In this document: in pieces, positions 8,206-9,752 of the stretch | How positions within the stretch are numbered: position 1 is the stretch's first letter | How the letters are laid out: each line of letters starts with the position of its first letter | NCBI RefSeq assembly: GCF_022760805.1 | Contig: NZ_JAIVFL010000001.1 | Span: 1,240,001-1,304,000 of the forward strand | Direction: 5' to 3' | Source: Candidatus Mycolicibacterium alkanivorans | GTDB taxonomy: Bacteria > Actinomycetota > Actinomycetes > Mycobacteriales > Mycobacteriaceae | Length of the DNA stretch: 64,000 nt | Notes under the pieces: model-generated | What the model was told of the DNA's origin: nothing | The model's database searches: none | The model's input: the letters and a program-made list of their open reading frames with translations, nothing else | Made by a program: the position numbers and the translations under genes

Positions 8206-8733
8206 TTAGGGAGTCAGCGCGACCGAGTACGGCCCGTCCACGCCGGCCAGCCGCAGCTCCGAAAGTGCTTGAGAGATGACGTCCGGATATTCGCGCGCGT
8301 CGGCGGGCAGCGCCAGCGGCGGGTTGGAGCTGCAGCCCCGGATGCCGTCGATCGAGGCCGGTGCGTAGCCCTCGAAGATCGCCCGGTCCTCGACGAACGC
8401 CAGCTTCTTGGCGGCCTCCTTGACCGGATCCCAGTCGGAGTCCTGCGCGCCGCGCTCGACATCGTCGATCGCGATGCGCGACACCGTGAACGGCGCCCTC
8501 AGCCGCACCAGCGGCTTGGCATCGCGCAGGTGGGCCACCACACCGTCGGCCGGTGGGGACACGTCGCGCAGATGCCCGGTGCTCACCGCTGCCGTCACCG
8601 GGCCACCCGGACCGCTGACGTCGACCACCCGCCGGCCCGCGAGGTGCCGCTTGAAGGTTCGGGTGGCCTCCAATTCGATTTCTTCCCAAGCGGATTCGGT
8701 GACCGGGGCGAGCTCGCGATAGAGGTTGTTCAT
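8206..8733 (-). CDS. Family 1 encapsulin shell protein, C-terminally truncated
   Basis: Encodes 175 residues beginning MNNLYRELAPVT. It follows the mycobacterial encapsulin (about 265 residues, HK97 phage-capsid fold) closely up to ...LRLAGVDGPYSV. After ALTP a TAA ends the frame and the purQ gene follows directly. The N-terminal arm, E-loop and part of the P-domain remain; roughly 90 residues, including the rest of the A-domain, are absent, and no continuation is seen in other frames. Its ATG overlaps the stop of the DyP cargo gene (TGATG). Shell assembly is doubtful. See findings. Confidence 0.85.
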   Translation of the reverse strand: MNNLYRELAPVTESAWEEIELEATRTFKRHLAGRRVVDVSGPGGPVTAAVSTGHLRDVSPPADGVVAHLRDAKPLVRLRAPFTVSRIAIDDVERGAQDSDWDPVKEAAKKLAFVEDRAIFEGYAPASIDGIRGCSSNPPLALPADAREYPDVISQALSELRLAGVDGPYSVALTP

Positions 8734-9752
8734 CAGGATCGTCCTTTCAGACTGCCGATCGCCAGGGAGCCGTCGGGAGAGGTGGTCGGTGCCGGGGGAG
8801 CCGTTGCCGCCTCAGTACCCGGCAGCGGTGGAGGGTTGTTGAGGAAGTCGACGGTGGGGGTGAAGAACAGGCAGCCGGTGAGCGCGGTGGAGAACTCGAG
8901 GATGCGGTCGGTGTTGCCCGGCGGGTCGCCGATGAACATGTTCTCCAGCATCTTCTCGGTCACCGTCGGCGACCGCGAGTAGCCGATGTAGTACGTGCCG
9001 TACTCACCCTTGCCCACTTCACCGAACGGCATGTTGGCCCGCACGATCTTGAGCTCATTGCCCTCGGCGTCCTCGATGACATTCAGTGCCACATGGGAAT
9101 TGGCGGGTTTCACGTCGTCGGCGAGCTCGATGTCCTCGAGTTTGGTGCGGCCGATCACCCGCTCCTGCTCGGTGACCGACAGCGCCTCCCACGACGCCAT
9201 GGCGTGGACGTACTTCTGCACGTGGACATAGCAGCCGCCGGCGAAAACCGGGTCCTCGTCGCCGATCTGGCTGGCGCTCAACGCAATCGGGCCGTCCGGG
9301 TTCTCGGTGCCGTCGACGAAGCCGAGCAGATCGCGGTTGTCGAAGAACTTGAAGCCGTGCACCTCATCGACGACGGTGATCGCCCCGGCCATCGACTTGG
9401 CCACCTGACCGGCTAGCTCGAAGCAGACGTCGAGCACCTCGGCGCGGATGTGGAACAGCAGATCCCCCGGGGTCGCCGGGGCGTGATGGCGGGCGCCGTG
9501 CAGCTCGACGAACGGATGCAACTCGGCGGGCCGCGGACCGGAGAACAACCGGTCCCAGGCGTCGGAGCCGATCGACGTCACCATCGACAGGTGCTTGGAC
9601 GGGTCGCGGAAGCCGACCGCCCGGACCAGGCCCGCGAGGCCCGGCAGCGCGTCATGCACGGCGGCTTCACCGCCCTCGTCGATGGTGGCCACCAGGAAGA
9701 TGGCCGCCGGAGTCAACGGCGCCAGTACCGGTTGCGGTAGTGGTGAGGGCAC
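8733..9752 (-). CDS. Dye-decolorizing peroxidase (DyP), encapsulin cargo
   Basis: A 339-residue haem peroxidase using H2O2. The DyP motif GFVDGTEN contains catalytic Asp147; His220 (NSHVALN) is the likely proximal haem ligand and Arg238 the distal arginine. After a flexible Pro/Thr-rich linker the protein ends DGSLAIGSLKGRS, the known encapsulin-targeting peptide pattern (LxIGSLKG). It starts at GTG 9752 and is translationally coupled to the downstream encapsulin gene. The cargo signal is intact although the shell gene is truncated. Confidence 0.93.
   Translation of the reverse strand: MPSPLPQPVLAPLTPAAIFLVATIDEGGEAAVHDALPGLAGLVRAVGFRDPSKHLSMVTSIGSDAWDRLFSGPRPAELHPFVELHGARHHAPATPGDLLFHIRAEVLDVCFELAGQVAKSMAGAITVVDEVHGFKFFDNRDLLGFVDGTENPDGPIALSASQIGDEDPVFAGGCYVHVQKYVHAMASWEALSVTEQERVIGRTKLEDIELADDVKPANSHVALNVIEDAEGNELKIVRANMPFGEVGKGEYGTYYIGYSRSPTVTEKMLENMFIGDPPGNTDRILEFSTALTGCLFFTPTVDFLNNPPPLPGTEAATAPPAPTTSPDGSLAIGSLKGRS

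What the first reader, a model, noticed from the sequence alone, without database searches (positions are those of the whole stretch)
8206..9752. DyP peroxidase keeps its encapsulin-targeting tail, but the shell gene is cut short
The encapsulin frame stops after 175 codons instead of about 265, exactly where purQ begins, while the cargo ends with an intact LAIGSLKG-type targeting peptide. Either the nanocompartment is lost and DyP acts free, or DyP targets a second encapsulin encoded elsewhere. The stop is followed by sequence unrelated to encapsulin, so a deletion rather than a point mutation is likely.
Basis: partly seen in the sequence, partly recalled or inferred. Interest (0 to 1): 0.75.

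Follow-up and report, generated by a model that had tools for sequence, protein, structure and literature searches.

The report
Encapsulin shell gene with internal deletion
A mycobacterium keeps an intact peroxidase that normally sits inside a protein nanocage, but its cage gene lacks an exact 90-codon stretch from the middle, apparently lost recently, so the cage probably no longer forms and the enzyme probably works free.

Summary
At 8206-8733(-) lies a family-1 encapsulin of 175 codons; relatives have about 265. The stop is not premature: the last codons (ALTP-stop) are the gene's native 3' end, joined to codon 171 by an exact 270-bp in-frame internal deletion at a 5-bp direct repeat (TCGGT). 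purQ does not begin there; it converges and ends 33 bp away, an ordinary arrangement. The missing 90 residues include the five-fold pore loop and part of the cargo-tail pocket, so a shell is unlikely. DyP (8733-9752) is intact, catalytic residues and tail unchanged. No second family-1 encapsulin was found in the genome; two near-identical family-2A shells were, but that family takes another cargo. The remaining shell codons show no decay, so the deletion is young (at most about 9-13% of the branch since the closest relative), or the remnant is still constrained, or the assembly is wrong; reads would decide. Five other genomes of the genus have damaged shell genes; in four of them the DyP tail is altered, here it is canonical. 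Best reading: recent loss of the compartment, DyP acting free with a vestigial tail. Modest interest.

The parts
8206..8733 (-). family-1 encapsulin shell gene with an internal 90-codon deletion (175 codons left: codons 1-171 plus the native ALTP-stop)
8222..8226 (-). deletion junction: TCGGT, found in the two closest relatives at codons 170-171 and again 270 bp further on at codons 260-261
8206..8220 (-). native 3' end of the encapsulin gene (A-L-T-P-stop)
8733..9752 (-). DyP-type peroxidase, encapsulated subgroup, intact (D147, H220, R238); shares one base with the shell gene
8742..8768 (-). DyP C-terminal encapsulin-targeting tail SLAIGSLKG; the only match of the tail pattern in the genome
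8173..8205 (.). 33-bp spacer between the convergent stops; 94 loci measured range from -11 to 2731 bp, and some near relatives have an SDR-like gene or its remains here
7501..8172 (+). purQ, intact, convergent (neighbour, not part of the operon)

Best explanation
The DyP-encapsulin operon has recently lost its shell. A slippage or short-homology deletion between two TCGGT copies 270 bp apart removed codons 172-261 (numbering of the 265-aa relatives; the repeat leaves the exact register open by a codon) in frame and left the native end and stop (shown by comparison). The product lacks the five-fold pore loop (His187, Tyr189) and the tail-pocket residues Asp202, Asp229 and Val230, so it is not expected to form the icosahedral shell or to hold the DyP tail (inferred from published structures). 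DyP, still encoded intact in the same operon, is expected to work as a free hexamer in the cytosol, with its tail left over (inferred).
For: Single PF04454 match in the own genome. Exact 270-bp difference with a native 3' end and a 5-bp repeat at the junction in both closest relatives; random breakpoints give 5 bp or more in 1.1%. Deleted residues from PMC11676171 (passages and section 3.5): pore His187/Tyr189, tail contacts Asp202, Asp229, Val230. PMC10960027 (passages): free Klebsiella DyP is an active hexamer. PMC8635971 (passages): in M. tuberculosis overexpressed unencapsulated DyP gives almost wild-type resistance, and the shell adds a modest further benefit. DyP residues D147, H220, R238 are invariant in 138 of 138 loci with a readable DyP, of 140.
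Against: No decay in the remaining shell codons: 4 nonsynonymous to 21 synonymous on the window branch, 5 to 23 on the sister branch, 11 ambiguous sites dropped. That requires a young deletion (upper 95% bound 8.7% of the branch, 12.9% with a softer neutral rate), continued constraint on the remnant, or an assembly error. Outgroups L113 and L116 have only 2 bp of repeat at the junction. A deletion in frame has a 1 in 3 chance, so that says nothing about function. Both structure predictions failed, the full-length control included, so loss of assembly was not tested.
Confidence: 0.8

Rival explanations
1. Assembly or strain artefact: the deletion is absent from the natural isolate, or arose in culture as a mixed or passaged allele.
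For: No second genome of the same species was found (nearest shell protein 93%; nearest DyP 92.3% among the loci, and 91% in the protein search), and codons 1-171 look fully constrained.
Against: The site lies inside a 4.05-Mb contig. A 5-bp repeat is too short to collapse an assembly (general knowledge). The clean join at a short repeat looks biological. No reads could be examined.
Confidence: 0.12
2. The 175-residue product is functional, not as a shell but as a tail-binding partner or partial assembly for DyP.
For: Strong constraint on codons 1-171; N-terminal part of the tail pocket present (F27, K28, R34, R35, V39; sequence, residue list); gene overlaps an intact DyP gene by one base.
Against: Two positions nearly invariant in 117 distinct relatives are changed: I31L, itself a tail-pocket residue, and V80A. 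Pocket residues D202, D229 and V230 are gone. No relative among the 139 loci read has a like protein. The constraint is equally explained by youth.
Confidence: 0.05
3. DyP is re-routed into one of the two family-2A encapsulins in the genome.
For: Two intact 308-aa SrpI-like shells are present.
Against: Each sits in an operon with its own 643-aa protein, an aminotransferase class-V (cysteine-desulfurase type) enzyme with a long N-terminal extension. In PMC8049743 (passages) family-2 loading uses a disordered N-terminal domain of the cargo; DyP carries a C-terminal family-1 tail.
Confidence: 0.03

Closest known systems
Mycobacterial family-1 DyP encapsulin (Cfp29/DyP; solved structures 7boj/7bok, 6i9g, 9bkx)
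   Same: DyP gene next to shell gene; canonical DyP tail; codons 1-171 of the shell.
   Different: Residues 172-261 of the shell are missing, including pore loop and part of the tail pocket.
Broken family-1 shell genes in other genomes of the genus (G397, G100, G231, G015, G353)
   Same: Shell gene damaged; DyP largely present in four (its end damaged in G231), fragmentary in G353.
   Different: There by frameshifts, several lesions or loss of the first 179 codons, with an altered DyP tail in four; here one clean in-frame deletion and a canonical tail. Some of those frameshifts may be sequencing errors.
Family-4 A-domain encapsulins and N-terminally truncated family-1 shells (PMC8346489, passages)
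   Same: Natural shortened shell proteins of the HK97 type.
   Different: Those lack N- and/or C-terminal parts and recur within clades; this one keeps the N-terminus and its last four residues, lacks an internal stretch, and was seen in one genome.
Five shorter shell proteins among the 120 listed protein hits (P0006, P0064 177 aa; P0072 183; P0027 219; P0076 238)
   Same: Shorter than 265 aa; two end within two residues of the window's length.
   Different: None ends in ALTP: P0006 and P0064 end with the in-place residues LLSADV/LLSADA, the others in sequence not of the native end. Contig ends, frameshifts or real truncations; not followed up. P0064 lies on a 56.6-kb contig.

Membership tests
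Family-1 encapsulin shell (PF04454) | Homology to Linocin_M18 / HK97-type shell | tested here: met
   206 bits, profile 1-175 of 253
Family-1 encapsulin shell (PF04454) | Complete shell protomer, about 265 residues | tested here: not met
   residues 172-261 deleted
Family-1 encapsulin shell (PF04454) | Complete cargo-tail pocket (Arg34, Asp229, Val230 and others) | tested here: not met
   Arg34 present; Asp202, Asp229, Val230 deleted
Family-1 encapsulin shell (PF04454) | Self-assembly into an icosahedral shell | not testable with these tools
   AlphaFold attempts uninformative, full-length control also poor
Encapsulated-type DyP cargo | DyP N and C domains, catalytic Asp, proximal His, distal Arg | tested here: met
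   domains; D147, H220, R238 invariant in 138 of 138. PMC10960027 names His225 and Arg242 in Klebsiella, 17 apart; here 18 apart; the assignment of D147 and R238 rests on recall of DypB, not on an alignment to Klebsiella
Encapsulated-type DyP cargo | C-terminal targeting tail SLxIGSLK | tested here: met
Family-2A encapsulin | SrpI-like shell (PF19307) as partner of this DyP | tested here: inconclusive
   two such shells in the genome, each beside a class-V aminotransferase-family protein; binding of DyP could not be tested
Family-4 A-domain encapsulin | Only the A-domain of the HK97 fold remains | tested here: not met
   N-terminal 171 residues retained

The most novel reading that the evidence does not exclude
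The internally deleted 175-residue protein is kept as a new, non-shell partner of DyP: it retains the N-terminal part of the tail pocket and could bind the DyP tail in a small complex, a first step from nanocage to soluble accessory protein.
Probability: 0.05. Interest if true: 0.7.

Novelty: new variant of a known kind. Interest (0 to 1): 0.35.

Why it matters
How far a peroxidase needs its nanocage is still being worked out. A lineage that dropped the cage and kept enzyme and tail is a natural experiment, and the comparison suggests an order of events: the shell breaks first, the targeting tail erodes afterwards, the enzyme persists for a time. It also warns that an encapsulin hit in a family search is not proof of a compartment.

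Tried and rejected
Premature stop or frameshift: rejected, the stop is native. Second family-1 shell: none found. Other cargo with the tail: the exact tail pattern matched once in the genome, in DyP; the reversed control pattern also matched once, so the scan is specific only to about one chance match. Relaxed selection on the remnant: not seen; by departures at conserved sites the window ranks 14th of 118, ties included. Structure prediction of the 175-residue and the 265-residue proteins: mean pLDDT 38 and 42, so the control failed and nothing is concluded; no fold search was run. Literature: three searches (encapsulin + pseudogene; encapsulin + truncated + shell protein + mycobacteri; encapsulin, gene loss, DyP, at least two, 15 of 91 listed) showed no paper on a naturally deletion-broken shell gene; for that question I saw listings only. 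The organism could not be named.

Full report
Observation. The window lies in a 4.05-Mb, 3-contig genome (99.2% complete), inside its 4,049,316-bp contig. It is taken for a Mycobacterium because 77 of the 80 record titles of the closest named loci say Mycobacterium, Mycolicibacterium or Mycobacteriaceae (the other three are MAGs labelled actinobacterium, Actinomycetota and Acidobacteria); the species could not be named. Encapsulin (8206-8733, minus) follows DyP (8733-9752, minus) with a one-base overlap; purQ (7501-8172, plus) converges and ends 33 bp from the encapsulin stop. The encapsulin matches PF04454 over profile positions 1-175 of 253.

The lesion. The closest relatives are L111/L031 (HKST-UBA41; shell 92.5%, DyP 92.3%) and L112/L032 (HKST-UBA43). 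They read ...GPYSV-LLSA... and, 270 bp later...EASV-ALTA-stop; the window reads ...GPYSV-ALTP-stop. Codon 171 is thus joined to the native last codons. The window's last 15 nt match the native 3' ends of 105 distinct relatives at 10.9 of 15 on average, against 7.3 of 15 for their codons 172-176 in place; native is better in 102, tied in 3 (only distinct genes of exactly 265 codons were counted). The junction pentamer TCGGT occurs at both places in L111 and L112; 57 of the 105 have 5 bp or more of identity there, L114 has 5 and L115 6, but L113 and L116 only 2. Random breakpoints within the L111 gene give 5 bp or more in 1.1%. It is an internal, in-frame deletion of exactly 270 bp, most simply by slippage or short-homology repair (inference).

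Second erosion at the same spot. In L033 (Mycobacterium sp. M26) a 273-codon frame that looks like a short-chain dehydrogenase lies between encapsulin and purQ (named by eye and recall, no family search); L031 has an internally deleted remnant, L032 only its tail, the window nothing (my reading). PMC8346489 (passages) reports short-chain oxidoreductases as accessory genes in mycobacterial DyP operons. Spacers in the 94 loci where both genes could be read run from -11 to 2731 bp, so 33 bp are ordinary.

Rarity. Of 139 loci with a readable shell frame (117 distinct genes besides the window's), the window alone has 175 codons. With the 265-aa P0001 as query, 350 of 396 genomes of the genus match. 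Read from that table, 343 have a best E-value of 6.9e-134 or lower and seven stand apart: the window; G094, split over two contigs; G397 and G100, frameshifts; G231, three pieces; G015, only residues 180-264; G353, several stops. E-value is a proxy: the individual places of most of the 343 were not all listed or read. Seven unbroken genomes (G011, G014, G084, G111, G133, G355, G378) show two or three family-1 matches, so a second shell is possible in the genus; in the own genome none was found. Among the 120 protein hits listed, five are shorter than 250 aa (P0006, P0027, P0064, P0072, P0076); none has the window's ALTP end. The window's own protein was not in that list; it may be absent from the database or hidden in a 90% cluster. 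Of the 46 genomes without a shell match, 20 were listed and tested for DyP: 10 have no match, the rest only weak matches or broken fragments, none an intact encapsulated-type DyP; several of these genomes are incomplete, and the other 26 were not tested.

What happens to the tail. In 115 distinct DyPs from shell-intact loci the tail core reads IGSLK in 112, VGSLK and IGSMK in one each, and in one (L137) the frame is shifted and no tail is read; the lysine and the second serine are unchanged in all 114 that can be read, the first serine is S in 103, T in 8, A in 3. In the shell-broken genomes: G397 GSLGIGSLRG, G100 GALSIGNLKG, G015 broken off after GS, G231 no tail in the DyP frame, G353 none found; G094, a mere contig split, is canonical. 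PMC11676171 (section 3.5) reports from the Klebsiella work that changing the lysine, or both serines together, to alanine abolishes binding; these are the positions changed in G397 (to Arg, a mild change) and G100. The window's tail is canonical. The numbers are small, but they fit shell loss first and tail erosion later, with the window at the start.

Age. On the branch to the window since its split from L111, shell codons 1-171 carry 4 nonsynonymous and 21 synonymous changes, on the sister branch 5 and 23; DyP 13:30 and 15:46; purQ 8:34 and 6:31; ambiguous sites (11, 8, 7) were dropped. If the remnant were unconstrained since the deletion, at most 8.7% of the branch can lie after it (12.9% with the neutral expectation cut to 70%). 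This is a parsimony count with a Poisson bound, rough. Two changes hit near-invariant sites, I31L and V80A.

Consequence. PMC11676171 (passages and section 3.5) places His187 and Tyr189 in the five-fold pore and lists Ala24, Phe27, Lys28, Ile31, Arg34, Arg35, Val39, Asp229 and Val230 (Asp202 once) as tail contacts. The deletion removes Asp202, Asp229, Val230 and the pore loop. PMC11830004 (passages) describes the subunit as P-domain, A-domain and E-loop, with 12 pentamers per shell. That the remnant cannot assemble is inference; my structure predictions were uninformative. DyP is intact by domains and by D147, H220 and R238. Free DyP is an active hexamer in Klebsiella (PMC10960027, passages), and in M. 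tuberculosis overexpressed free DyP gives almost wild-type stress resistance while the shell adds a modest benefit (PMC8635971, passages), so loss of the cage need not end the enzyme's use.

Other shells. Two near-identical family-2A operons (shell 308 aa, PF19307; 643-aa protein with PF00266 from residue 259, taken for the cysteine desulfurase cargo) lie inverted about 51 kb apart, 99.89% identical over 2817 bp. They are unlikely to take DyP, because family-2 loading uses an N-terminal cargo domain (PMC8049743, passages).

Verdict. A real and clean lesion if the assembly is right; ordinary gene loss in kind, informative in its details.

Noticed in passing
G000:C1 986456-989272 (L180 6457-9273) and 1040265-1043081 (L181 10266-13082), outside the window: A two-gene cassette (family-2A encapsulin plus presumed cysteine desulfurase) is duplicated in inverted orientation, 3 mismatches in 2817 bp; the identical stretch runs from the ribosome-binding site of the shell to a few bases past the last stop. 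Of 11 other genomes searched, G122 also has two copies, four have one, G265 only pieces, five none.
   Followed up: partly
L188 and L191 (G265): Two separate 37-codon N-terminal stubs of the family-2A shell (97% identical to the query) without the rest of the gene; each locus resembles a different flank of the intact operon.
   Followed up: no
L137 (G317): The DyP frame is shifted near its end so that the targeting tail lies in another frame while the shell is intact; frameshift or sequencing error.
   Followed up: no
window 8173-8205: The spacer keeps what looks like the left arm of a palindromic spacer element whose right arm is gone together with the SDR-like gene of near relatives (by eye).
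   Followed up: partly
P0064, P0006 (177 aa each): Two shell proteins in the public protein set end at residue 177 with the in-place sequence; P0064 lies on a 56.6-kb contig and may be a natural truncation.
   Followed up: no
G000:C1 1494762-1495151 (L173): A second, distant DyP-like match (33% over residues 140-264) in an open frame of 420 aa elsewhere in the genome.
   Followed up: no
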